Assembly (NCBI GenBank): GCA_024637295.1
Contig: JAGXFL010000008.1
Span: forward strand, 62,001 to 126,000
Length of the DNA stretch: 64,000 nucleotides
Direction: 5' to 3'
DNA from: Sulfuricurvum sp.
GTDB lineage: Bacteria; Campylobacterota; Campylobacteria; Campylobacterales; Sulfurimonadaceae
In this document: positions 19,373-31,362 of the stretch, in pieces
How positions within the stretch are numbered: the stretch's first letter is position 1
Layout of the letters: each line of letters begins with the position of its first letter
Notes under the pieces: model-generated
Seen by the model: only the letters and a program-made list of their open reading frames with translations
What the model was told of the DNA's origin: nothing
Database searches by the model: none
Translations under genes and position numbers: made by a program

Positions 19373-19882
19373 CTATGCTGCTTTCTTAAAGCGCTGTAAA
19401 CACCAACGTCCTTCTTCTTTTATCAAGCCAACATCCACATTGATATTTTTTTGTTTCTCAGAGGTCAGTGTAGCTGAGAAACTCAATCTATTAGTATCTG
19501 GACTCGAAAAATCATATATTTTTGTCACATCCAAACAGCTACTATTATCTGCCACAATATCGCCAAATGGAAATTCTATCTCTGCTTTCGTCTCATTCGG
19601 AGTAAAGCTAAATAATGATGCTTTTATGTATTTTTCACTGCCACTACAAACCGCTTTGTTTAATACACCGTAAATGGTTGGTTGCGCGTCATTTATGATT
19701 TGTAACACCTTAGCATCACTCGGCAATTGAGCCGTATTATCGTAATTTACCCGATCTTGTAGATCATGTACACTTACATAGTTTAAGCCGTCCATCATTT
19801 TTAATGCCGTTTTTGTTTGACTGCACCCTGTTACCATTATTACTATGACTAAAATCCATGCTGAAATTTTTATATTACTCAT
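19373..19882 (-). CDS. Lipoprotein 3 of the two-partner secretion locus (unknown function)
   Basis: The protein has a lipoprotein signal peptide with lipobox VTGC. No family is recognised; three later Cys residues and a C-terminal GRWCLQRFKK stretch stand out. The second ATG (19880-19882) is chosen because AAGGA lies 7 nt before it; an ATG two codons upstream leaves no room for that site. It is the last of three non-homologous lipoprotein genes downstream of the giant exoprotein gene, which makes an immunity or accessory role worth testing (inference). Confidence 0.6.
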   Translation of the reverse strand: MSNIKISAWILVIVIMVTGCSQTKTALKMMDGLNYVSVHDLQDRVNYDNTAQLPSDAKVLQIINDAQPTIYGVLNKAVCSGSEKYIKASLFSFTPNETKAEIEFPFGDIVADNSSCLDVTKIYDFSSPDTNRLSFSATLTSEKQKNINVDVGLIKEEGRWCLQRFKKAA

Positions 19883-19905
19883 TGCCATTTCCTTTTATTT
19901 GTAAA

Positions 19906-20388
19906 CTATAGTTCGGATTGTGATTTTTTTAACATCTCTTCAAAGGCTCTTGCTGCACCCGATAATTTTATATCTGTTCCGCTTTGTGGTGATTGTATAA
20001 ATTGAATACTATGTGCATGTAATTCATTATCTTTCGTTCTTTTCACAACCCATACTTCTTTGAATGAAATTGGGTCGGAACTATGGCTTACAAATCTTGT
20101 TTGTATGAGTTCTATATCTTGTGTATCTTCTTTTTGCATGATCAGTTTTAAAGCATCCACTTTTAATATCGAGTCAGCTATAGAAGGTGCAATTTTACCT
20201 ATAAGATACGGTTGGAAACTAACACCATACTGCGATTCATTCGCCACATATCTGACCGGAGAATCATCTTTCTCTAATTTTTCATTCGCGATTTTTACAC
20301 CTGCTAAAGCTGTTGAATTCCCAAGGCCACTACATCCAACTATAAATGTCATCAGTAGTAAACTTCCGATTAATACCTTTATCTTCAT
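19906..20388 (-). CDS. Lipoprotein 2 of the two-partner secretion locus (unknown function)
   Basis: The 160-residue protein has a lipoprotein signal (MKIKVLIGSLLLMTFIVGC, lipobox IVGC). The mature part is hydrophilic with alternating strand- and helix-like stretches, including VWVVKRTKDNELHAHSIQF. No family is recognised and there is no visible similarity to the other two lipoproteins. Short spacing (about 30 nt upstream, 23 nt downstream) argues for one operon with them and the exoprotein gene. Confidence 0.6.
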   Translation of the reverse strand: MKIKVLIGSLLLMTFIVGCSGLGNSTALAGVKIANEKLEKDDSPVRYVANESQYGVSFQPYLIGKIAPSIADSILKVDALKLIMQKEDTQDIELIQTRFVSHSSDPISFKEVWVVKRTKDNELHAHSIQFIQSPQSGTDIKLSGAARAFEEMLKKSQSEL

Positions 20389-20417
20389 GTCAATCCTTTG
20401 TATAACTTAATTTTGTA

Positions 20418-21134
20418 TTACCCGCTCACTTCATCAGGACCAAAATCCTCATCGCTTGGGGTAAAGCTATCCAAACTTTGTTGTGCACGTTGGAGTATGT
20501 CTTGAAAGCTATATTGATTTTTTAAATTTACATTGTTGGGATTTGCTAAATGAGCATAAATATTAATCTGATATTGTTTTAACTTGCCAGTTTTTGTATA
20601 CGAATAAAAATAATATTTTTTCCCGTATTCATCCCATTCTCGATATTTACTATATGTCTCCACTTCTATCGCCGGATAATGATTTACGGTAGTGTAGCGA
20701 GCAGATTTAAAGTCTACTGTTACAGCGTACTTTTTTAAATATTCTTGATCTTTTTTGTTGATAGCTTCCATAGTTTTTAATGCCGTTTCATGAAATCCCA
20801 AAGTTCTTTCTTTATCAAATAGTCCTAACCGCACTTTATAATTCTCAGCATTGCGAGGAGTTATTTCTACACCATAGCTCAACCACATTACGCCATCATG
20901 CATTCTTTTTAGATGAAAGGTAAATGCGTCGGTCGTTTGTGAACGGATAAATTTCCATTGATCAAGTTCATTTTGTTTTATTTCAGGCGGTAAAATAGAG
21001 TAGTGTTTAAAATATGCCCTCTTATTAGAACTATCTATATTAATATTATAAAAAGATGGTGATGGTTCAATCCCTTTACATCCTAAGAACATCAACATGA
21101 CTATCATAAGGAATATCCATTTAGTCTTTCCCAT
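20418..21134 (-). CDS. Lipoprotein 1, overlapping the exoprotein gene; candidate immunity protein
   Basis: The protein starts MGKTKWIFLMIVMLMFLGC, with lipobox FLGC at about residue 19, so it should be a lipid-anchored envelope protein. The ATG at 21134 is chosen over an upstream GTG because AGGTG lies 7 nt before it. The start lies within the last codons of the 2052-residue exoprotein gene (14-nt overlap), which is the position of the immunity gene in contact-dependent inhibition loci. The mature part is rich in Tyr and Lys and has no family I recognise. An envelope-anchored inhibitor would fit a lipase-like toxin (inference). Confidence 0.62.
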   Translation of the reverse strand: MGKTKWIFLMIVMLMFLGCKGIEPSPSFYNINIDSSNKRAYFKHYSILPPEIKQNELDQWKFIRSQTTDAFTFHLKRMHDGVMWLSYGVEITPRNAENYKVRLGLFDKERTLGFHETALKTMEAINKKDQEYLKKYAVTVDFKSARYTTVNHYPAIEVETYSKYREWDEYGKKYYFYSYTKTGKLKQYQINIYAHLANPNNVNLKNQYSFQDILQRAQQSLDSFTPSDEDFGPDEVSG

Positions 21135-24100
21135 TTTTATCACCTGCCTGGTTGAAGTTTGCGAGATCTTTATTTAAATTGTGTTGATCATAAAAATTAT
21201 TCAATAAATCAGGATTTCCATTAATTCCGATATACTCTCCAAGAATAGGTGTCTTCATCTCATCCCCACATCCGATAACGCAGGTATACCCTGAATGCGG
21301 GCTTGGTTTCGTTGGGTCTTTTCCATTTGCGATACTGCTGACTCCGCGACTGAACATATAGCCAAACTCACCGTCCGACATTGACGAATTATTAATCCCC
21401 GCTCCATTTCCTCCGAGAAAGATTGGCAATGTCCCTACCGGATCACCCGGATTGACGGAGGAGCGGAAATACGTTTCAAGCTTGTTATCATCTATAAATT
21501 CTTTAGAATACAAACTGCTAACCAATGCTGATGAGTTCTCAAACCCTATCGGTGAACCGTAAAATCCGACTTTGAAATCAGCCGTAGTTTTATCACTTAG
21601 TAGAGCTTTAAGTTCATCCTCATAGTATTTCATCCCTGCGTAGGTCTCTCCCGTCCCCTCGGAGTGTGCGACTACGGTGAGTTTACCATCTCGGATATCC
21701 GCTAGTTGGGTAATTGTTGAGCCTGTTTGTTTTGCACTTCCGGTTGAGAGAACACCTACTCCTAATTTTTCAACTAGCCATTTATCCTGCATTGTTTCAG
21801 CTGCATCGGGTAAAAATCCGTGTGTTGGGTTATAGTTGACAAGGGTCAATGATGCCCCTCCGGTCTGTTCGTTGCCGTTTGCCAATGCTTCAGGAACGGC
21901 ATTGAGGATACCGTTGGTAAATACATGGGTAATGGATTTAGCGGCATTTTTAGTCACATAGATTTTATAATCGTTTAGGTTTCCGGTTGCTTTAGCCGCA
22001 TCAACTGCTGCTTGATCGGCAAGGATGACTACTGTTTTATTTGGATTGGTAACATAGTGACCATCTTTGGTTTGAATAATATCTTTTGAGTCAACACCCA
22101 TGGCGGCTAATTTTTCAGTAGTAGTGCTTTGAATAACATTACGGTTGTCTCCCGCTAATTGGGAAATTATTTGGGTAATGTAGCCTCCGTTATTGGATTG
22201 TGTCGGAATTATCCCTGTCCCTTTATCTATATATTCCAATCCTTTACCGACCACTCCCGCCAATCCTTCAGCATTAGACCCCGGTAAGTTCTCCGTGATC
22301 TCTTTGTGAACACTAAGTCCCATATCATCGATTGCTTGTCCCCAATCTTTTGCTGTCTGTGTAGGGTTGAGCACCGAATTGATTGAGTTTTGGCTGGCGT
22401 AGATGTCGTAGTTCTCACTCTCGTTTTTGGTGATCTCTTTGGCTTTGCTAATGTCGCGATTTAGGTTGGTCGGTAATGCCTCTTGATTAGCAAGGGTGAT
22501 CGTTCCTCCTCCTATAGTTGCACGATTGATCTGCTCTTTATCACTGTAGCCGTATCCCGCTTCGAGGGTTCCTCCGGTAGTACCTTTACTGTTCGTTTGG
22601 AATTGTGTTGCAGTGATATTTCCAAGACCGATACTCATCGAAGTGGATTTATCGTGATCGCTGATATCGCTTGCGCTCAGTGTCCCAGTTGTAAGATGAA
22701 GGTTATTTACGTCATTACCGTTGGTATCTTTCGTGGCGATGATCGCTCCTTGCAGATCAGTATTTTTGGCAACCGTAATATCGGCTTTTTCAGCAGCGAT
22801 GATACCCGTTTGCTCATTTACCCATGCTTTGGAACTGCTCGATTTTCCTACGCCAGCACTGATGCTTCCTCCGGTACTGATGGCAATACTTTGGCTATCG
22901 CCTTTAGAATTTCCGGTGTCTTGGACACTGATCAGATTTAGATTTCCTCCTACGTTCGCCGTAACCGTATTAGCTGATACATGAGCCCCTTGGAGTGTTG
23001 TATCTCCTGATGTATTGATGAGAACATCTTTTGCTCCCACATAGGTATCTCGTTGGATGGTATCGTTTGAAGTGTTCTTTGATTGCGCATACGATGCGTC
23101 AACTTGACCTTCACGTGTTCCGTACAAAGTGACTTTGAGTGAGCCTGATTTATCCGATGAAAAAGAAGATGCATTCTGTGTAGCAGACGCTAGTTTAATT
23201 GTCTCTGCATTCATGGAGACTTTGTTATCTGCTATGACATCACTGCCTGTAACTGCGATCTCTTTTACAGCATCCAATATCACATCATGCCCAGTAGCAA
23301 TAGTGGAGCTTTGTGCGGAAGTGCTTTGGCTGGATGTTTCGCTTCTTGACATCTCGGCAACTGCATCGAATCCTGCACTTACCGCATGTGACAGGGTATT
23401 AGTGATGAGATCGACTGATTTTAGTACTTTTGATCCTGCACTGACGGCATTATCAGACTTGGGGAGAGACTGAGCCGTACTGGCTAACTCTTGTGCTGCT
23501 TGGGTCACATGTTGCTGTACTCCTACTTTAACTCCGGCCTTGAGTTCTTCGTGAATTTGATTTTTGTACTGAGTCGCATCTTGGGAGAGAATATTGATAT
23601 TTTTATCGGATTGAATAGAAATATCGTTATTGGCAGTAATATTCGATGCAAGAACATTCGTGTTATTACCTGAATGAATAACAATGTTGTCTGCTATCAA
23701 TTGGGTCGCTTTCTCTTGTGTTTGACCTTCTCCAAGTTTATCGGATTTTGTAACTACTCCAGCAAAAATGGATGCTTCGTTCATATTGAGCGTTACTTCA
23801 ATACCTGCTTTAGCGACTGATTCTTTATGATCGTGAGTTGTGCTCTCGGTTGCAGAGAGGAGATTTACATCTCTGTTGGCATTCATATCAATTGTTGAGG
23901 CAACGATAGTGGATCCGATTGATGCAATATCCTGTCCCGCGTTCACTGCTACTGTTTTTCCACTCAAATTTGAGCTTTTTTGAATGATATTTGTTTTGGC
24001 ATCTTTGGTTTGTTTTTCTTCCGCATATGTCAGCATATTGTCGCTAAAACCTAAACTGAGCCCTGATGTTTTACTGTAATGTTTTTGTGTCTTTTGCTCT

Positions 24101-27100
24101 TCATCCGATAGAATATTAACATCTTGCTCTGCTTTTAGTTTAATAGTATCCCCCGCATTTACATTCGACGCCACCACGTTGATATCTTTGCCCGAGTTTA
24201 AGATGATGTTTTGCGCAGTGGTTTTGACGGTGGCTTCATGGAGTTTTACCGCATCGCTGCTATCGAGTGTCATAATCTTGCTAAGTCCCCCAAGAGAGCT
24301 TTTGGACTCTTCGTGCAAAGAGGCTTCTCGGTATGCTTTGGCTAGGAGGTTGATGTCGCCTGTCGCGTTCACTTGGATGTTTTGTTGTGCTGTGAGGTTG
24401 GCGGCTTGAAGTGTCGTATCTTTGCCACTGGTGATATTTATGTTCTCCCCCGTGATGTTCGAAGAGGCAACCGACTCTTTGAGGGTCATATCATGCGAGG
24501 ATTTTTTACTCATAAACCCTTTGGAGCTGGTTTTAATATCTTTGAATTCACGGTTATTACTGGCGGTGACGTTGACATTCTCTCCTGCGGTAACGGCTAC
24601 ATCGTTGCCAGCCGTAATGGTTGAAGAGTTCACCGTAATGTCTTTGGCAGCGTTTAGGTTAACATCCCCTCCTGCATTAAGGGATGCGGCATGTTGTTTG
24701 ACTGATTCAATCTCGCTGGAACCCTTATTCCAAGTTGTTTTATAATGGGAGGATTGTTCTAGGGAGGCTAGGGTGATGTTTTGTGCAGAGAGATCGATAG
24801 TTTCTCCTGCGGCGGTTTCTCCTCCTACAAGGTTGATATTTTTATCCGCATTAGCCACCAAATTACCCTGTGCCCAAATGCCCGCACTCTCACCCACGGT
24901 ATCCAGATGTCCTGTAATGCCTGCATGAGCGGAGAGATCGTGTTGTTTATGATCGGTTTGAGAGGTGATGGAGCCATTGTCACTGACTAGGGCTACATTG
25001 TTACCGCTGATGGAAGCTGAAGCGTTGGTCATATCGCCTGCAGTGTGTAAGAGCATATCACCACTGCTTTTAAGCGACCCTGCATTATTCGTAAGCGTAT
25101 CGGCAGTCGCTACGAGTGTTCCTTCTGCTCTGATAGTTCCTGCGTTGTTGAGTTCACCCGCAACGGCCAAAGCCATATCCCCAAGCGCGACGATCTTACC
25201 CCCATGATCCAAGGTTTGATTTTTTAGACTGGCGAGATAGACAACAGGGACAAGGACTTTATGCCCTGAAACCATACGCTCTTCCATCCAGACGATGTCA
25301 CGATCCAAGGCAGCCAGTTGAGATGAGGAGAGAGAAACCCCAAGGGCTAGCTGGAGATTCCCCGCTACATTGATCGCATTGTCCATGAGGGCTTGGTATT
25401 GCCCCGTGTCGGTTCCAAACCCAGCCAAACGACGCTCACCCGTGAGACGAAATACCGCATCACGTACGAGCTGCGTCTCATAGCGTGCATCTCCCAGACG
25501 TTTGGTGTCGGATGCCATGTTCAGATGCAAGTGGCTCATCATGTAATCCGAACTCATAAAGGTTTTGTAGTTAGTAAAGAGAGGATTGGTCTCGATGAGA
25601 TAGGGCAATGTTGCATCGGGTGTCAGAACAAACTCGCCATTACTCCCATCGGGAAGGGTATAGTTGATCTTTCCTGTGGTGAGATTACGCATATAGGATG
25701 TGGGTGCCACACCCAGAGATGAGTAGTTGGAACCTTGGGTAATATCGGCGTTGTTTACCGTTGCCAAAGCACCAAGTAAATTGCGTCCGGCGCTGATGGT
25801 AGAGAAAACGTGGTCGGTGAGGGTGTCGGTGCGATTCAAAGTACCCCAATAGCTATCATTGACCGTATGCCATCCCCAATCCCATTCACGATGTGAGCGA
25901 TTATAATAGTACTGTGTTTGAATGATGTCATGGGCATTGAGTGCCGCTTCGTTCTTGAGGCTTCCTGAGAGATAGAGATCACGATCTGCGGCGATCATTG
26001 AATAGCGGTTATGAATCGCACCCTCGAGGGACATATCACGACCTGCCAAAAGGTACGCAGGATGATAGTTAGTTTTATCAATACTGTCTAGCCATTTTGT
26101 TGTATGTAGATCATCAGCACCATAGCTAATAACGCTATCTGGCACATAAAGAGTTGTTTTAATCGGCGTCATGCTTGAAAAATTCTCTATCGCTGTTGCT
26201 TGAATACTGAGATCATTAGCCGCTTCGATGTGCCCAGCTTCGTTGCGTAGTGTCCCCGTATCGTGTATCGTGATGTCCCCATCTGAGAGGATCACTGCGT
26301 TGGAAGCCACCGTGAGGGTATCGGTCGCTTTGAGATCCATGGTGTTTTTACTGCGCAAGAGACCATTGACCGTAAGGGATTGTGACGTGGAGCTTACCGT
26401 ACCATCTGATACGGCGGCCCCCAAAACGATCTGCCCGTTGGCATTGAGGGTGAGGGAATCACTGGCATAAGTGATTTGGGGAAGATTGACCCCAACACCG
26501 GTATCCGTGGCGATGAGGGTAATAGCGTTGGCATAGATACCCCCAAGAGCGCTTGAATCGATAGAGTAAGGTTGTGTCCCTGTACCGTTTTGAGCAGCAT
26601 AGGTGCTTCCATCCGCAGCGATGTCGTTATCCCCTGTAATGACGTCGAGGCGTTTGGCATGTATCTGTGCATTGAGTTGAAGGGTCTTGGTATAGAGATC
26701 GACACGGTCGATATTATCGGAGACCATACCATCGCCTTCGATTAGGATATCTCCCCCTCGGACACTCTGCCCCTGATAAACACCGCCGCTGTAGTTAGGC
26801 ATTCCTGTGGAAAGCGTTGCGCGTGGGGTATTGATAAACCCTCCGCCATTGACCGTGATACCGTTAGGGTTTGCGATGATGACATCCGCACTGTGTCCTG
26901 CTACTTCGGTATACCCACGTAGAAGCGTACGAGAGGTTCCCGTTACTTCATTGAGGATTACACGTGCGGGAGTCGTTCCCAGATTGGCATTTCCCTGCAC
27001 CATTCCTCCCAGTTGGGTAGAGGTGATACCCGTGGCATTGTTGAGGATCAGACCTATAGGATTGACGTTAAAATCGCTGAACTTGTTGTGCGACAAACCT

Positions 27101-27279
27101 GAGCCGTTTGGCGTTACGATATTGACCAACGGGACACCATTTGCGGTGACATCCAGCCCCGCTTGATGTGATGCGGCGGCTGCACCGTCAACTGCGAGGT
27201 CTGTGCCATAAAGCATATTGGATAACAGTACGGTGGAGAGGATGCAGGAGATACTTTGGCGGTAGAGGTGGGTAAACAT
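21121..27279 (-). CDS. TpsA filamentous-haemagglutinin-type exoprotein with lipase-like C terminus
   Basis: The 2052-residue protein is the secreted partner of a two-partner (type Vb) system. A signal peptide (1-25) is followed by the TPS secretion domain (about 30-280), with LILNNATGI and VIIANPNGITVNGGGFINTP that the TpsB partner recognises. A long beta-helix follows, with haemagglutinin-type repeats dominating about 780-1500 (recurring GKD/AGxD and HxS-rich units). The final 300 residues differ: HVFTNGILN, then VVAHSEGTGET (Ser1873), VNPGDPVGTLP (Asp1946) and PSPHSGYTC (His1995). These are the order and surroundings of a class-3-lipase-like catalytic triad. The VENN motif of classical CdiA is absent. 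AGGAG lies 8 nt before the ATG. Confidence 0.85.
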   Translation of the reverse strand: MFTHLYRQSISCILSTVLLSNMLYGTDLAVDGAAAASHQAGLDVTANGVPLVNIVTPNGSGLSHNKFSDFNVNPIGLILNNATGITSTQLGGMVQGNANLGTTPARVILNEVTGTSRTLLRGYTEVAGHSADVIIANPNGITVNGGGFINTPRATLSTGMPNYSGGVYQGQSVRGGDILIEGDGMVSDNIDRVDLYTKTLQLNAQIHAKRLDVITGDNDIAADGSTYAAQNGTGTQPYSIDSSALGGIYANAITLIATDTGVGVNLPQITYASDSLTLNANGQIVLGAAVSDGTVSSTSQSLTVNGLLRSKNTMDLKATDTLTVASNAVILSDGDITIHDTGTLRNEAGHIEAANDLSIQATAIENFSSMTPIKTTLYVPDSVISYGADDLHTTKWLDSIDKTNYHPAYLLAGRDMSLEGAIHNRYSMIAADRDLYLSGSLKNEAALNAHDIIQTQYYYNRSHREWDWGWHTVNDSYWGTLNRTDTLTDHVFSTISAGRNLLGALATVNNADITQGSNYSSLGVAPTSYMRNLTTGKINYTLPDGSNGEFVLTPDATLPYLIETNPLFTNYKTFMSSDYMMSHLHLNMASDTKRLGDARYETQLVRDAVFRLTGERRLAGFGTDTGQYQALMDNAINVAGNLQLALGVSLSSSQLAALDRDIVWMEERMVSGHKVLVPVVYLASLKNQTLDHGGKIVALGDMALAVAGELNNAGTIRAEGTLVATADTLTNNAGSLKSSGDMLLHTAGDMTNASASISGNNVALVSDNGSITSQTDHKQHDLSAHAGITGHLDTVGESAGIWAQGNLVANADKNINLVGGETAAGETIDLSAQNITLASLEQSSHYKTTWNKGSSEIESVKQHAASLNAGGDVNLNAAKDITVNSSTITAGNDVAVTAGENVNVTASNNREFKDIKTSSKGFMSKKSSHDMTLKESVASSNITGENINITSGKDTTLQAANLTAQQNIQVNATGDINLLAKAYREASLHEESKSSLGGLSKIMTLDSSDAVKLHEATVKTTAQNIILNSGKDINVVASNVNAGDTIKLKAEQDVNILSDEEQKTQKHYSKTSGLSLGFSDNMLTYAEEKQTKDAKTNIIQKSSNLSGKTVAVNAGQDIASIGSTIVASTIDMNANRDVNLLSATESTTHDHKESVAKAGIEVTLNMNEASIFAGVVTKSDKLGEGQTQEKATQLIADNIVIHSGNNTNVLASNITANNDISIQSDKNINILSQDATQYKNQIHEELKAGVKVGVQQHVTQAAQELASTAQSLPKSDNAVSAGSKVLKSVDLITNTLSHAVSAGFDAVAEMSRSETSSQSTSAQSSTIATGHDVILDAVKEIAVTGSDVIADNKVSMNAETIKLASATQNASSFSSDKSGSLKVTLYGTREGQVDASYAQSKNTSNDTIQRDTYVGAKDVLINTSGDTTLQGAHVSANTVTANVGGNLNLISVQDTGNSKGDSQSIAISTGGSISAGVGKSSSSKAWVNEQTGIIAAEKADITVAKNTDLQGAIIATKDTNGNDVNNLHLTTGTLSASDISDHDKSTSMSIGLGNITATQFQTNSKGTTGGTLEAGYGYSDKEQINRATIGGGTITLANQEALPTNLNRDISKAKEITKNESENYDIYASQNSINSVLNPTQTAKDWGQAIDDMGLSVHKEITENLPGSNAEGLAGVVGKGLEYIDKGTGIIPTQSNNGGYITQIISQLAGDNRNVIQSTTTEKLAAMGVDSKDIIQTKDGHYVTNPNKTVVILADQAAVDAAKATGNLNDYKIYVTKNAAKSITHVFTNGILNAVPEALANGNEQTGGASLTLVNYNPTHGFLPDAAETMQDKWLVEKLGVGVLSTGSAKQTGSTITQLADIRDGKLTVVAHSEGTGETYAGMKYYEDELKALLSDKTTADFKVGFYGSPIGFENSSALVSSLYSKEFIDDNKLETYFRSSVNPGDPVGTLPIFLGGNGAGINNSSMSDGEFGYMFSRGVSSIANGKDPTKPSPHSGYTCVIGCGDEMKTPILGEYIGINGNPDLLNNFYDQHNLNKDLANFNQAGDKNGKD

Positions 27280-27291
27280 GGGGTGAGACTC

Positions 27292-28905
27292 CTAAAAATT
27301 AGCCGATAGATTCACACCCACAAATGGGGCCGTACTAAACGTATCATTGGGATGGTTGAGGGGATTGGCATGGTAAATATCAAGGGAAAAGGCTCGGTAA
27401 TGGCCCCGTAATCCTACGGTTGCGCTGGAAAGGGTTCCCCCCTGGGCAGAAACATCCGATGCGATATGCCCGATGTCATAAGCGATGTACGGGGAGAAAT
27501 AGTCGTTTACGGGGAAGCTTAGATCATTGCGCGTGTACCAGCCGCTGTTGCCGGTGATCCCTTGTTTTTGGAACCCTCGGATACTGTAGGCACCGCCGAT
27601 GCTAATTTGCTCAACGCTGTAGAGAAGATCATGGGTTCGTTGCGCAAAGCCTGAGAATTGATAGGTCATGGGTACGGCCGTATCCAAATATTTGGTAGCA
27701 CCCGCGCTTAGGGTGTATTTGGAGAAATCATGCGGCAACGTTCGACCTCTAGTGGGGCTAAAAGCATTGACTCCTTGATAGTAATTCAACAGAGCAAAAA
27801 GTTCCCATGAGCTTTGGCGATAGACGTATTTGAACCCCATATTGGCGACACTGAGATGATAGGTAGAGGAGTCGATCAAGATCCCATCGATACGGCTTTC
27901 GTTTAGTTTTTTCGCAATCTGGGCATTGAGGTCAATACTGTAGTTACGTGTATGGTGCAGTTTATAGGTAGTGCCAAGTGAGGCTACCGAACTCTCTCCA
28001 TGCGAGATGTACGAATCATTGAGTCCGTTAATGGTCTGATCGTAGGTGAAGCGTGAAAACCCTACTTCCCATAAAGCACTGCCAACGGGGATGGCGTAGG
28101 TGTAAAAATTACCGAAACTTTTTTTCCCTGTTTGCTGTTTGTCGGTGGTATTGATATTGGCGGTAAACACGTCACTCATGCCCATAGGGTTCTCCCACGT
28201 AATCCCACCTGAGAGTTGCAGCTTGCCCGTCGCATCCGAACCGTAGTTATTGACCCCAAGGTTCCCAAACACACTACGGGCCTCTTGGGAATGCAGCATT
28301 ACGATACTTCCCCCTTCTTGGGTTCCAGGTAACAGATCCATCGTCGTTTTATTGGATCGCAGACGGTTGACCTGTTCGAGTGAATTTTCCAATTTAACCA
28401 AATCCAGTGGATTATCGCCTATCCCAAAAAACGCCCCTTTGGTTTTGGCATTATCACTCACCACTTTTTCAACGGTTCCCTCTAGCGCATACAAATCCAC
28501 AATCCCATCGGAAATATCCTGAGGGGTCAAATAGGCTCGTGACGTGATGTACCCATGCTCGATGTAGAGATTGGTAAGCTCTTTGGCGAGGGTATTGAGG
28601 GAGCGGATTCCATTGCATTGGTTTACATAAGGGTTGATCGTCGCATTCACGTCACAGGAGAGAAGTAAGCTGTTGTTGTGTAATAAAATTTGTTTTATGG
28701 GGTAACAGGTCTCGTCTTTAGTAGCGGATGGGATCTCTTCTTTTTGGCGATACACAGAAGAGGGGATGGTCGTGTCGGTGCTTTTAAGTTGCTCAAAGAG
28801 CTGTCGCTGCTGTTCATTCATAAGCGGAAGTTCTGTTGTAGAAGCACCATATGAGCAGGTAAACAGGCAAATGAGTGAAAAGGAGAGGATACGTTTGGGG
28901 AGCAT
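27292..28905 (-). CDS. TpsB outer-membrane transporter (FhaC/ShlB family)
   Basis: The 537-residue protein exports its TpsA partner through the outer membrane. It has a signal peptide (1-20) and a POTRA-2 region (about 65-145; YPIKQILLHNN, ITSRAYLTPQDISDGIVDLYALEG). The ShlB-type 16-strand barrel follows, with a lid-lock-like segment containing ISIGGAYSIRGFQ (about 430-442), the conserved VRGF/Y-type motif of the Omp85 superfamily. It ends in GVNLSANF with a terminal Phe. The gene precedes tpsA by 12 nt, the usual B-A order. Confidence 0.92.
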   Translation of the reverse strand: MLPKRILSFSLICLFTCSYGASTTELPLMNEQQRQLFEQLKSTDTTIPSSVYRQKEEIPSATKDETCYPIKQILLHNNSLLLSCDVNATINPYVNQCNGIRSLNTLAKELTNLYIEHGYITSRAYLTPQDISDGIVDLYALEGTVEKVVSDNAKTKGAFFGIGDNPLDLVKLENSLEQVNRLRSNKTTMDLLPGTQEGGSIVMLHSQEARSVFGNLGVNNYGSDATGKLQLSGGITWENPMGMSDVFTANINTTDKQQTGKKSFGNFYTYAIPVGSALWEVGFSRFTYDQTINGLNDSYISHGESSVASLGTTYKLHHTRNYSIDLNAQIAKKLNESRIDGILIDSSTYHLSVANMGFKYVYRQSSWELFALLNYYQGVNAFSPTRGRTLPHDFSKYTLSAGATKYLDTAVPMTYQFSGFAQRTHDLLYSVEQISIGGAYSIRGFQKQGITGNSGWYTRNDLSFPVNDYFSPYIAYDIGHIASDVSAQGGTLSSATVGLRGHYRAFSLDIYHANPLNHPNDTFSTAPFVGVNLSANF

Positions 28906-29168: not shown

Positions 29169-29182
29169 TGGTGGACCCTAGC
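29169..29182 (-). repeat. Duplicate of the tRNA-Ala 3' end (candidate attachment site)
   Basis: TGGTGGACCCTAGC is identical to 31287-31300, the last 14 nt of the tRNA-Ala gene including its CCA. The two copies are in the same orientation and 2118 bp apart. A duplicated tRNA 3' end on the side facing the tRNA terminus is the classic footprint of integrase-mediated insertion. Confidence 0.65.
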
Positions 29183-29306
29183 TCAACCGACGAGTCCCTA
29201 TTTTACGATATTTCGAGAAGTATAGCCCCCCTATAAGTACCCCTAAAAAGCAATGCTTATATGCTTGCTATACCTAACTATTTTATGACTCAATAGTATA
29301 GTATAA

Positions 29307-29476
29307 ATGTCTAAAAAAATGTCTAGTAACGTGTAAAATATTCACATTTAGACATTATATTTTAGGCATAAAAGCTTTCAGTGAGAGCCTTTTTTAAATT
29401 TGAGAAGTGAACCTAATTTTATGGTGAATGTCTAAAAAAATGTCTAAGAATGTCTAAAAAATTAACTTTTAGACAT
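29307..29476. repeat. Cluster of seven TGTCTA-core repeats
   Basis: ATGTCTAAA or a one-base variant occurs at 29307, 29319, 29428, 29440 and 29450, and its reverse complement TTTAGACAT at 29347 and 29468. A 20-bp block is duplicated exactly (29306-29325 and 29427-29446). Spacing within each block is 10-12 bp, about one helical turn, which suggests a protein-binding array. Confidence 0.7.
29374..29395. terminator. Terminator-like hairpin downstream of the AlbA_2 gene
   Basis: GCTTTC, three-base loop, GAGAGC (6-bp stem with one G-T pair), followed by CTTTTTT on the plus strand and preceded by AAAA, so it could work in both directions. On the minus strand it would end transcription of the AlbA_2 gene. 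Confidence 0.4.
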
Positions 29477-29479
29477 TCT
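29447..29479 (-). repeat. Perfect 13-bp inverted repeat across the AlbA_2 stop codon
   Basis: AGAATGTCTAAAA, seven-base loop, TTTTAGACATTCT. The right arm encodes the last codons of the AlbA_2 protein and both arms carry the TGTCTA core. It may act as an operator, a hairpin in the mRNA end, or both. Confidence 0.6.
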
Positions 29480-31120
29480 CCATTCTTTTCCTTCATTGAC
29501 TATTTTTCCCCCAAGACGGAGGGTTTGAAGGTTATTTTTGATTTTATTTTTCTTTTGTTGATCGTCTAAAATACTAGGAAGCTTGCCTAAAAGAACTTTT
29601 TCAAAATCTGATTTTTTCCCTTTTTTATATATTTGGAGATAATCTAATATTACTTTTTGACAATAATCATCATCGATGCCGCGCATTTTTATATATTCAT
29701 CTTTTTGATCGGTTTGTTTGGCTACTTGTGATGAAAGGTGATAGTTAGGTTTTCGTCCCTCAATAAGCCCTTTATCACGAAGATATTTAAGGCTCTCATC
29801 CGTGCTAGGTAGGTGTTTAACGACACGATCCAGTGCAATAACATCGTGCAAACTGAGTTCAGGATTCATAGCCAAAAGCTTGGCATAGCGATCATCTAGT
29901 ATTTGACCGAAAATAGTGACTTCTACTCGATTTGGTTCGATTTTATAGTTTGGCATAGGGAAAAATCGTTGTCGAAGTTTCGAGTAAATCCGTTTTATAC
30001 CACTGCCTATGGTATCGATCATATTAATCTCGACCATTGCCTGACACAAAAACGGATTGCGATACAGTTCAGGCGGTGCGTCACGCTCTATGACATTTTC
30101 AACATTCTCAGGGATGAAGCTTCCGACGTTTGAAAATACGAGTTTATCAGGGAACTCAACAACATTGATACGACCACCCATTTCATAGTCTTGGTGAGCG
30201 ATACAGTTGTGCAGGGCTTCGTAAATGATCCATGGATCGTACTTGTCTATCTCATCGGGGAAAAGCTTGCTGTCCGCCATGTAGCGATATTTGTAATTTC
30301 GGATCTTCGCGTGAACCTTTTGTGCGCTGACAAGCAACGGTAATCCAAAATGCTCATACCCTTGCTCGATTCCGTCACGGTCTTTGAGTACCCATGTGAT
30401 GCGTGGCACTGCGGGGGAGAGTAAATGCACCGATTCCGATTTTCCCAAAAGCAAAAGAGTACTATTGGTGATTTTACTATCAAGCGTGAGCTTGGCTTTG
30501 TTGAGAAAGGTTCGATTGCCCCATTGCGCCACTTCTTCGGCAAGATTGGGGTGTTTGGTGATGTATTCCTCTCTCGCCAAACGGATCGCTTCGGGGTCAA
30601 GATGTTCCAGTGTCGCACCCTCACATAGATGTGCCGACCAATCATCCGCTTTTCCTAGCGGTTCCGCCAAAATAGAAGCTTCTCGTTCGGGTCTAAGTTC
30701 GATTAGGCTATCACCGCTTCGTTGCCAAGCCTTGTTATGAGCGTATATAGGCTTACGTGGCAGATGTTTGGGGATATGGATGATCCAAACTGTCTGTTGC
30801 GTGTCGGTCGTCGTGAGAGCCTCTACAGATAGCCCCTCACTGCTAAGATTTAGGGAAACACCTAATAATCGATGCGGGAGTGTTTCGGGTGTGTAGTCAT
30901 GAAGATTTTCGATGCCTACAATGTCGAGTGTACCATCTTTGACACCGATAACGATATGCCCGCCGTTCATGTTGGCGATAGCTGAAACATACGTGGCTAA
31001 ATCTTTGCCCTTGTCCCCTGAAATACTATGTTTGAGATTTTTAAACTCTTTCCACTCACACGCTTCGTTCTCTTTTGGATAGTGAGCTTTGAGATAGTTT
31101 TGGAGTTCTAAAGCTGTCAT
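29462..31120 (-). CDS. AlbA_2 (Schlafen-type AAA_4) domain protein with HATPase_c_4-like domain
   Basis: The 552-residue protein starts with an AlbA_2/Schlafen domain (about 10-130; CEWKEFKN, ATYVSAIANMNGGHIVIGV). A long linker and an ATP-dependent helicase-like (HATPase_c_4) region (about 290-400; YEALHNCIAHQDYEMGGRIN, then FSNVGSF and IGSGIKRIY) follow. The C-terminal part (about 400-550) appears helical with possible winged-helix features. Such proteins act as transcriptional regulators, and some relatives occur in defence or mobile loci. It is the only gene between tRNA-Ala and the duplicated tRNA end, so it is likely cargo of a mini-island (inference). The TGTCTA array at its 3' end could be its binding site. 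Confidence 0.78.
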   Translation of the reverse strand: MTALELQNYLKAHYPKENEACEWKEFKNLKHSISGDKGKDLATYVSAIANMNGGHIVIGVKDGTLDIVGIENLHDYTPETLPHRLLGVSLNLSSEGLSVEALTTTDTQQTVWIIHIPKHLPRKPIYAHNKAWQRSGDSLIELRPEREASILAEPLGKADDWSAHLCEGATLEHLDPEAIRLAREEYITKHPNLAEEVAQWGNRTFLNKAKLTLDSKITNSTLLLLGKSESVHLLSPAVPRITWVLKDRDGIEQGYEHFGLPLLVSAQKVHAKIRNYKYRYMADSKLFPDEIDKYDPWIIYEALHNCIAHQDYEMGGRINVVEFPDKLVFSNVGSFIPENVENVIERDAPPELYRNPFLCQAMVEINMIDTIGSGIKRIYSKLRQRFFPMPNYKIEPNRVEVTIFGQILDDRYAKLLAMNPELSLHDVIALDRVVKHLPSTDESLKYLRDKGLIEGRKPNYHLSSQVAKQTDQKDEYIKMRGIDDDYCQKVILDYLQIYKKGKKSDFEKVLLGKLPSILDDQQKKNKIKNNLQTLRLGGKIVNEGKEWRMSKS

Positions 31121-31286
31121 TCGTTTTCCAGTTACACAAATTTTAAATATTCATTTTTAGTCGAGAGGGAAAGTGACAAATTCTATGCCTCAATGTTAAA
31201 GTGAGGATATTATAGCGCAATAGAAAATAGAGGATAATTTTTTGGCTTTTACGATGAGTGTAGGTGATTGTTAAATAAAGAAGGAT

Positions 31287-31362
31287 TGGTGGACCCTAGC
31301 GGGATCGAACCGCTGACCTCGTCGCTGCCAGCGACGCGCTCTCCCAGCTGAGCTAAGGGCCC
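31287..31362 (-). tRNA. tRNA-Ala (anticodon GGC)
   Basis: The 76-nt gene folds into a full cloverleaf on the minus strand. Acceptor GGGCCCT pairs with AGGGTCC (one G-T pair), the D arm is GCTC/GAGC, and anticodon stem CGTCG/CGACG encloses CTGGCAG with GGC at 34-36. The T arm is AGCGG-TTCGATC-CCGCT. The discriminator A and CCA are encoded. It reads GCC (and GCU) alanine codons. Its 3' end is duplicated at 29169-29182. Confidence 0.97.

What the first reader, a model, noticed from the sequence alone, without database searches (positions are those of the whole stretch)
19373..28905. Two-partner secretion locus ending in a lipase-like domain, followed by three lipoprotein genes
The last 300 residues of the 2052-residue TpsA carry a nucleophile elbow (VVAHSEGTGE, Ser1873), VNPGDPVGTLP (Asp1946) and PSPHSGYTC (His1995). 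The spacing of 73 and 49 residues and the local context resemble class-3 lipases. The next gene starts inside the tpsA 3' end and encodes a lipoprotein, followed by two more unrelated lipoproteins. Lipid-attacking toxins in other secretion systems are often neutralised by envelope lipoproteins, so this could be a contact-delivered phospholipase with one to three immunity proteins. It lacks the VENN motif, so it is not a standard CdiA.
Basis: partly seen in the sequence, partly recalled or inferred. Interest (0 to 1): 0.82.

Follow-up and report, generated by a model that had tools for sequence, protein, structure and literature searches.

The report
Secreted hydrolase toxin with lipoprotein immunity
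A sulfur-oxidising bacterium carries a surface-delivered protein that ends in a serine-hydrolase (probably lipid-attacking) toxin domain, paired with a matching membrane lipoprotein that most likely protects the producer; relatives exchange this toxin half and its lipoprotein as one cassette, with the exchange point inside the enzyme itself.

Summary
In detail: tpsB, a 2052-residue tpsA ending in Ser1873/Asp1946/His1995, then three lipoprotein-type genes, the first overlapping tpsA. The triad plus a Gly-Ser/Ala-Pro motif is kept in 16 of 17 Campylobacterota cassettes, so it is no chance match. Relatives show polymorphic-toxin anatomy: the TpsA C-terminal domain with an overlapping lipoprotein gene, then orphan toxin halves each with its own lipoprotein. 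Toxin tails and lipoproteins co-vary (Mantel r 0.67, p 5e-5). Lipoprotein relatives occur only in toxin-bearing genomes (7 of 7, among 151). The motif set matches Tox-ABhydrolase-2 (Zhang et al. 2012), a predicted toxin of unknown target; a lipoprotein partner points to a periplasmic, envelope-ester target. Main/orphan DNA homology in one relative ends between the Ser and Asp codons and resumes at the lipoprotein 3' end, so swaps seem to cut inside the enzyme. Only the first lipoprotein (20418-21134) qualifies as immunity: the second has relatives in Campylobacter-like genomes unlinked to any such locus; the third has no relatives. Structure models are low-confidence, but their best matches are cutinases. 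Phospholipase activity and contact delivery are unproven. New variant of a known kind.

The parts
27292..28905 (-). tpsB (537 aa), outer-membrane transporter of the two-partner secretion pair
   Evidence: ShlB E 1.4e-69, POTRA_2 E 2.5e-22, POTRA_3 E 2.5e-9; 12 bp upstream of tpsA
21121..27279 (-). tpsA (2052 aa), exoprotein; conserved stalk, variable middle, variable C-terminal toxin domain
   Evidence: TPS E 7.5e-45, Fil_haemagg_2 E 2.3e-53; identity to G037 and G098 homologues 59-88% at residues 901-1700, falling to 34-45% after 1700
26425..27195 (-). TPS secretion domain, residues 29-285
   Evidence: PF05860
21124..22110 (-). C-terminal hydrolase domain, residues 1724-2052
   Evidence: alignment A3, AF2 model, relatives
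21661..21663 (-). Ser1873, putative nucleophile (AHSEGT)
   Evidence: invariant in A3; strand-elbow-helix in both models
21550..21558 (-). Gly1908-Ser-Pro1910 motif after the elbow
   Evidence: G[SA]P kept in every cassette scored
21442..21444 (-). Asp1946, putative acid of the triad
   Evidence: invariant in A3
21295..21297 (-). His1995, putative base of the triad (SPHSGY)
   Evidence: invariant in A3
21268..21282 (-). Cys2000 and Cys2004 (CVIGC), the only cysteines of the mature TpsA, beside the catalytic His
   Evidence: invariant in the 10 sequences of A3
20418..21134 (-). cognate lipoprotein, proposed immunity protein (238 aa from the ATG; tool protein P0002 begins at GTG 21143)
   Evidence: 14-nt overlap with tpsA; homologous to lipoproteins next to toxin cassettes, best L028:4009-4584 E 8e-24; 7 of 7 co-occurrence
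19906..20388 (-). second lipoprotein (160 aa), passenger or accessory, probably not immunity
   Evidence: relatives E 4e-8 to 7e-3 in 9 genomes of other families, beside nrdB in the Campylobacter-type loci read, not TPS-linked
19373..19888 (-). third lipoprotein (171 aa), no known relatives
   Evidence: only its own genome among 347 of the phylum; weak PHROG match of unknown function
29169..29182 (+). 14-bp copy of the tRNA-Ala 3' end, att-like repeat bounding the upstream element
31287..31362 (-). tRNA-Ala(GGC), the site at which the block between 19.3 and 31.3 kb is inserted
   Evidence: empty sites in L051 and L052

Best explanation
This is a two-partner-secretion polymorphic toxin. TpsB exports TpsA to the surface, where the beta-helical stalk displays a C-terminal serine hydrolase of the Tox-ABhydrolase-2 type. 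Delivered to the envelope of a neighbouring cell, the hydrolase attacks an ester in the periplasm, most likely membrane phospholipid, using Ser1873-Asp1946-His1995. The producer is protected by the lipoprotein encoded by the gene overlapping the tpsA 3' end, which sits in its envelope and blocks the hydrolase. Shown by sequence: the TPS pair, the conserved triad residues, the overlapping lipoprotein, orphan toxin/lipoprotein cassettes in relatives, tail-lipoprotein co-variation, and exclusive co-occurrence. Inferred: toxicity, lipid substrate, periplasmic action, contact delivery, and neutralisation by direct binding.
For: Orphan C-terminal toxin halves, each with its own lipoprotein gene, follow tpsA in G098, G097 and L028; G047, G141, G094 and G029 hold orphan toxin/lipoprotein pairs too. 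Tail and lipoprotein similarity correlate, Mantel r 0.67, p 5e-5 over 13 pairs, against r 0.41 for the elbow segment. In G098 and G097 the same two tail types sit in swapped positions and each keeps its lipoprotein type. The lipoprotein profile finds strong matches in 7 of 151 genomes, all toxin-positive (10 of 151 strong). The triad is kept in 16 of 17. The TpsA identity profile is CdiA-like, conserved stalk and variable tip. The motif set NG, [DE], [KR], HSxG, D, H fits Tox-ABhydrolase-2, listed for T5SS, hemagglutinin repeats and epsilon-proteobacteria (PMC3482391). Tle phospholipases of T6SS are neutralised by outer-membrane lipoproteins Tli1 and Tli3 (PMC9860674). VIA matches of the second model: ranks 1-41 all cutinase or lipase, Z 5.1-6.9. 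A displaced neighbouring cassette in G141 is a Lipase_3-type domain over Pfam's cut-off.
Against: Both structure models are low-confidence (mean pLDDT 55 and 50) and the part holding Asp and His is mostly below 50, so triad geometry is untested. No profile places the domain in a characterised lipase family. Zhang et al. state that Tox-ABhydrolase-2 showed no specific relation to known lipases. Co-variation could reflect joint inheritance of neighbours. Lipoproteins can also serve as accessory factors of TPS systems (BcpO, PMC5422565). No inhibition or binding data exist.
Confidence: 0.68

Rival explanations
1. Same toxin-immunity logic, but the hydrolase attacks something other than membrane lipid: a peptide, a cell-wall or lipoprotein acyl ester, or a small thioester or ester in the periplasm.
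For: alpha/beta hydrolases have many substrates and Zhang et al. leave the target of Tox-ABhydrolase-2 open; no lipase family matches by profile.
Against: Closest fold matches of both (weak) models are cutinases and lipases; an array partner in G141 is a Lipase_3-type domain; periplasmic or lipoprotein inhibitors are usual for Tle phospholipases.
Confidence: 0.25
2. A secreted surface enzyme or adhesin for the cell's own use (nutrient ester, biofilm matrix), with the overlapping lipoprotein acting as chaperone, anchor or maturation factor for the TpsA C-terminus and not as immunity.
For: HMW1 and HxuA keep a disulfide-bearing C-terminal anchor in the periplasm (PMC5422565) and this TpsA has a single conserved CxxxC near its end; Burkholderia BcpO can be a lipoprotein needed for BcpA function. 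Co-variation fits any specific partner.
Against: Tandem orphan toxin halves lacking the stalk, each still with its lipoprotein gene, and tandem extra lipoprotein genes without their own toxin half (L032) make sense for toxin switching and immunity banking, not for a chaperone. Sequence diversification is strongest in the tip and lipoprotein.
Confidence: 0.15
3. All three lipoproteins are immunity proteins.
For: All three are co-directional, closely spaced and lie in a block absent from the empty tRNA-Ala sites of G082 and G076. Extra immunity genes are common downstream of CDI loci (PMC9086364).
Against: The second has relatives in unrelated core contexts; the third has no relatives and is not seen in any other cassette.
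Confidence: 0.07
4. The locus targets eukaryotes (for example grazing protists) and the lipoprotein protects the producer's own membrane.
For: Tox-ABhydrolase-2 also occurs in an amoebal endosymbiont without an immunity protein.
Against: Strict lipoprotein pairing and cassette switching are hallmarks of kin-discriminating bacterial toxins (general knowledge; CDI precedent).
Confidence: 0.06

Closest known systems
Tox-ABhydrolase-2 (Zhang et al. 2012, PMC3482391)
   Same: Order and identity of motifs NG, [DE], [KR], HSxG, D, H; C-terminal in hemagglutinin-repeat exoproteins; T5SS listed; epsilon-proteobacteria listed
   Different: Only Imm-SUKH is listed as partner there; here the partner is an envelope lipoprotein. 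Membership rests on motifs, since the original alignment could not be compared
CDI systems (CdiB/CdiA/CdiI)
   Same: Gene order B-A-immunity, TPS domain plus hemagglutinin repeats, conserved stalk and variable tip, orphan toxin/immunity modules downstream
   Different: No VENN motif, lipoprotein and not cytoplasmic immunity, exchange point apparently inside the enzyme and not upstream of the whole toxin; no lipase or hydrolase toxin is mentioned in the 2022 CDI effector review
T6SS lipase effectors Tle1-4 with Tli lipoproteins (PMC9860674)
   Same: Ser-Asp-His hydrolase acting in the periplasm, immunity by a lipoprotein encoded next door
   Different: Delivery by T6SS and not TPS; no detectable sequence relation; GxSxG in Tle, here HSx followed by G, A, S or D
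Lipase_3 (class 3 lipases, PF01764)
   Same: Order Ser, G-x-P, D-x-V, His resembles class 3 lipases; weak hhalign alignment of elbow and GSP
   Different: No profile match in the own genome; hhalign probability only 2-10%
Type Vd and Va lipases (PlpD, EstA; PMC6555100)
   Same: Type V secreted lipases or esterases
   Different: Autotransporters, patatin or GDSL type; that 2019 review lists lipases for Va and Vd only

Membership tests
Two-partner secretion (type Vb) | TpsB with POTRA domains and ShlB barrel next to a TpsA with an N-terminal TPS domain | tested here: met
Tox-ABhydrolase-2 | Motifs NG, [DE], [KR], HSxG, D, H in order | tested here: met
   the G of HSxG is replaced (A, S or D) in three distant relatives
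Tox-ABhydrolase-2 | Homology to the original family alignment | not testable with these tools
CDI (CdiA class) | VENN or other PT motif before the CT | tested here: not met
   no VENN; no PT-VENN Pfam match
CDI (CdiA class) | Candidate immunity gene directly downstream and orphan CT/immunity modules | tested here: met
   the orphan modules are in relatives, and the immunity role itself is inferred
CDI (CdiA class) | Contact-dependent inhibition of non-immune siblings | not testable with these tools
   needs co-culture
Lipase_3 / class 3 lipase | Significant match to PF01764 | tested here: not met
alpha/beta hydrolase fold | Core sheet with strand-Ser elbow-helix, Asp and His on later loops, close in space | tested here: inconclusive
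   elbow topology and best fold matches fit, but pLDDT mostly below 50 around Asp and His
Polymorphic toxin-immunity system | Variable C-terminal domain on a conserved stalk with a co-varying neighbour | tested here: met
Bacterial lipoprotein | Signal sequence with lipobox cysteine | tested here: inconclusive
   present by inspection in all three; no predictor available; Phe at -3 in the first

The most novel reading that the evidence does not exclude
A TPS toxin family whose enzyme is split for recombination: the conserved stalk keeps the nucleophile half, while the Asp/His half, the tail and most of the matching lipoprotein are exchanged as one cassette between homology arms at the elbow and at the lipoprotein 3' end. 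This would make it a TPS-delivered envelope lipase family with lipoprotein immunity, and would place the target of Tox-ABhydrolase-2 in the periplasm.
Probability: 0.4. Interest if true: 0.78.

Novelty: new variant of a known kind. Interest (0 to 1): 0.62.

Why it matters
The reviews of TPS/CDI toxins read here mention no lipase or other hydrolase toxin. A TPS hydrolase with a lipoprotein inhibitor would give Tox-ABhydrolase-2 a likely compartment and target, and would show that one logic (periplasmic lipase neutralised by an envelope lipoprotein) is shared by T6SS and TPS weapons. The exchange point inside the catalytic domain is unusual: CDI is known for swapping whole C-terminal domains. 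It also points to a polymorphic antagonism system in free-living sulfur-oxidising Campylobacterota; the literature searches here found no paper on one.

Tried and rejected
Pfam, NCBIfam, PADLOC and PHROGs scans of the C-terminal domain and lipoproteins gave no family. PDB sequence searches gave nothing. Plasmid and viral-contig searches gave no relatives. Foldseek gave no match better than E 0.05 in PDB or the viral library. A second structure job with another family member as query gave lower confidence, so triad distances could not be measured. hhalign against nine Lipase_3 or lipase-like sequences aligned the elbow and GSP but with probability of only 2-10%; class 3 membership is not claimed. 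The idea that all three lipoproteins are immunity proteins was dropped for the second. Single-sequence searches with the first lipoprotein found nothing beyond its own genome; only the family profile did.

Full report
The observation. The window lies in a 2.17-Mb genome whose genus-mates include a record titled Sulfuricurvum (G098 = L030, same 10,621-bp contig). On the minus strand run tpsB (27292-28905), tpsA (21121-27279) and three genes with lipobox-type N termini (20418-21134, 19906-20388, 19373-19888). TpsB and TpsA are a proper two-partner secretion pair. The first lipoprotein gene starts 14 nt inside tpsA (ATG at 21134). The genome has one TPS-domain protein only.

The C-terminal domain is real and conserved. 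No Pfam or NCBIfam model matches it. Relatives were found in 9 of 151 family genomes with one sequence and in 12 with a profile (10 strongly), and in Sulfurimonas, Sulfurovum, Nautiliaceae and Campylobacteraceae records. In the ten-sequence alignment A3 the Ser, Asp, His and two cysteines beside the His are invariant. Of 17 cassettes with an elbow, 16 keep HS, G[SA]P, Asp and His in order. The glycine after the elbow is replaced in three distant relatives. The two cysteines are the only ones in the mature TpsA, which would fit a disulfide formed outside the cytoplasm (inference).

Fold. Two AlphaFold2 models were made, from the window protein and from a relative. Both are weak (mean pLDDT 55 and 50), with the Asp/His part mostly below 50. 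Both show strand, Ser elbow, helix, and a further strand ending at GSP. The best structural matches are cutinases: Z 5.1 for the first, and ranks 1-41 all cutinase or lipase with Z 5.1-6.9 for the second. Foldseek itself gave nothing better than E 0.05. This favours an alpha/beta hydrolase without proving it.

Toxin anatomy. Window TpsA is 59-88% identical to G037 and G098 TpsA at residues 901-1700 and 34-45% after 1700, with a less conserved middle at about 301-900 in the G098 comparison, the pattern known from CdiA. In G098, G097 and L028 the tpsA gene is followed by a lipoprotein gene and then by orphan toxin halves, each with its own lipoprotein gene. G094 has an orphan domain with its lipoprotein but no tpsBA beside it, plus a second lipoprotein behind a RelB/YafQ pair. 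L032 has three tandem lipoprotein genes. G141 has an orphan relative and a displaced Lipase_3-type domain with a secreted-protein gene behind it.

Pairing. Toxin tails and adjacent lipoproteins fall into matching types. Mantel r is 0.67 (p 5e-5) for tail against lipoprotein, and 0.41 (p 0.017) for the elbow segment against lipoprotein. G098 main pairs with G097 orphan, and G098 orphan with G097 main, for both tail and lipoprotein. The window's own tail type recurs as a tail fragment in L028 (3788-4012) followed by the best relative of the first lipoprotein (L028:4009-4584, E 8e-24). A profile of the lipoprotein family gives strong matches in 7 of 151 genomes and all 7 hold the toxin domain. 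By a simple hand count that ignores shared ancestry, seven of seven inside a set of ten has a chance of about 4e-10. The other three strong toxin genomes (G007, G047, G141) have a second, divergent lipoprotein family in the same place. Four marginal profile matches (E 4e-4 to 9e-4) are partial.

Exchange inside the enzyme. In G097 main and orphan copies are 97% identical over 336 bp, ending between the Ser and Asp codons; similarity resumes in the lipoprotein 3' end (91% over 104 bp). G098 shows the elbow arm (80% over 290 bp, here ending after the Asp codon); L028 shows the lipoprotein 3' arm (96% over 85 bp) and G133 likewise (81% over 260 bp). The simplest reading is that the C-terminal half of the enzyme, the tail and most of the lipoprotein are exchanged as a unit by homologous recombination. 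This was seen in relatives; the window has a single copy.

Genomic setting. Two genus-mates (G082, G076) have the flanking 212-aa gene, tRNA-Ala(GGC) and the 103-aa gene adjacent, without anything between. The window has a 12-kb block there: a Schlafen/AlbA_2 gene (29462-31120) bounded by 14-bp copies of the tRNA 3' end (29169 and 31287), then the TPS locus. In G029 the stretch before the same 103-aa gene holds an orphan toxin/lipoprotein array, and in G086 the AlbA_2 gene without TPS; both carry the tRNA 3'-end repeat, the full tRNA being outside the stretch read. So the locus looks like a genomic-island insertion at a tRNA hotspot.

The other two lipoproteins. The second has 28-36% identical relatives in nine genomes of other families; in the Campylobacter-type contexts read it lies beside nrdB and is not TPS-linked. 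The third has none among 347 genomes. Both lie in the inserted block but lack the signature of cognate immunity.

Comparison with the known. The motif list of Tox-ABhydrolase-2 in Zhang et al. 2012 fits, including T5SS delivery, hemagglutinin repeats and epsilon-proteobacteria; its listed partner is Imm-SUKH and its target was left open (PMC3482391). No other paper in the library uses the name. T6SS Tle phospholipases are periplasmic and are neutralised by outer-membrane lipoproteins (PMC9860674). A 2022 review of CDI effectors contains neither the word lipase nor hydrolase (PMC9086364), and a 2019 type V review lists lipases for Va and Vd only (PMC6555100). Subscription literature was not searchable.

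What is shown and what is inferred. Shown: anatomy, conservation, pairing, co-occurrence, island setting, recombination arms in relatives. Inferred: that the domain is toxic, that it cleaves lipid, that it acts in the periplasm, that delivery needs contact, and that the lipoprotein blocks it by binding. The main rival, a chaperone or anchor lipoprotein for an own-use enzyme, has precedents (HxuA/HMW1 disulfide anchor, BcpO; PMC5422565) but does not explain the orphan arrays.

Noticed in passing
window 29169-31300: Schlafen/AlbA_2 plus HATPase_c_4 gene bounded by 14-bp repeats of the tRNA-Ala 3' end, a separate small integrated element next to the TPS locus; 86% identical copy in G086 without TPS.
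   Followed up: partly
L023:9075-10518: A displaced Lipase_3/DUF726-type toxin domain with a downstream secreted-protein gene that lacks an obvious lipobox; a second lipase class in the same kind of array.
   Followed up: partly
L028:3788-4012: A 74-aa gene fusing a lipoprotein signal sequence to a bare toxin tail (CVIGCGDERITP...), directly before the best relative of the window's first lipoprotein.
   Followed up: no
L018:6209-8358: A RelB/YafQ toxin-antitoxin pair between two orphan lipoprotein genes, with no tpsBA beside them.
   Followed up: no
L050:776-4768: Orphan array in a sister species before the same flanking gene, with an HSQDN toxin variant, a lipase-like fragment and a frameshifted lipoprotein gene.
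   Followed up: partly
window 19373-19888: Third lipoprotein with four cysteines and no relatives in the phylum sample; weak similarity to PHROG 902 of unknown function.
   Followed up: partly
L032:5035-6814: Three tandem, partly near-identical lipoprotein genes behind one tpsA; looks like immunity banking.
   Followed up: no
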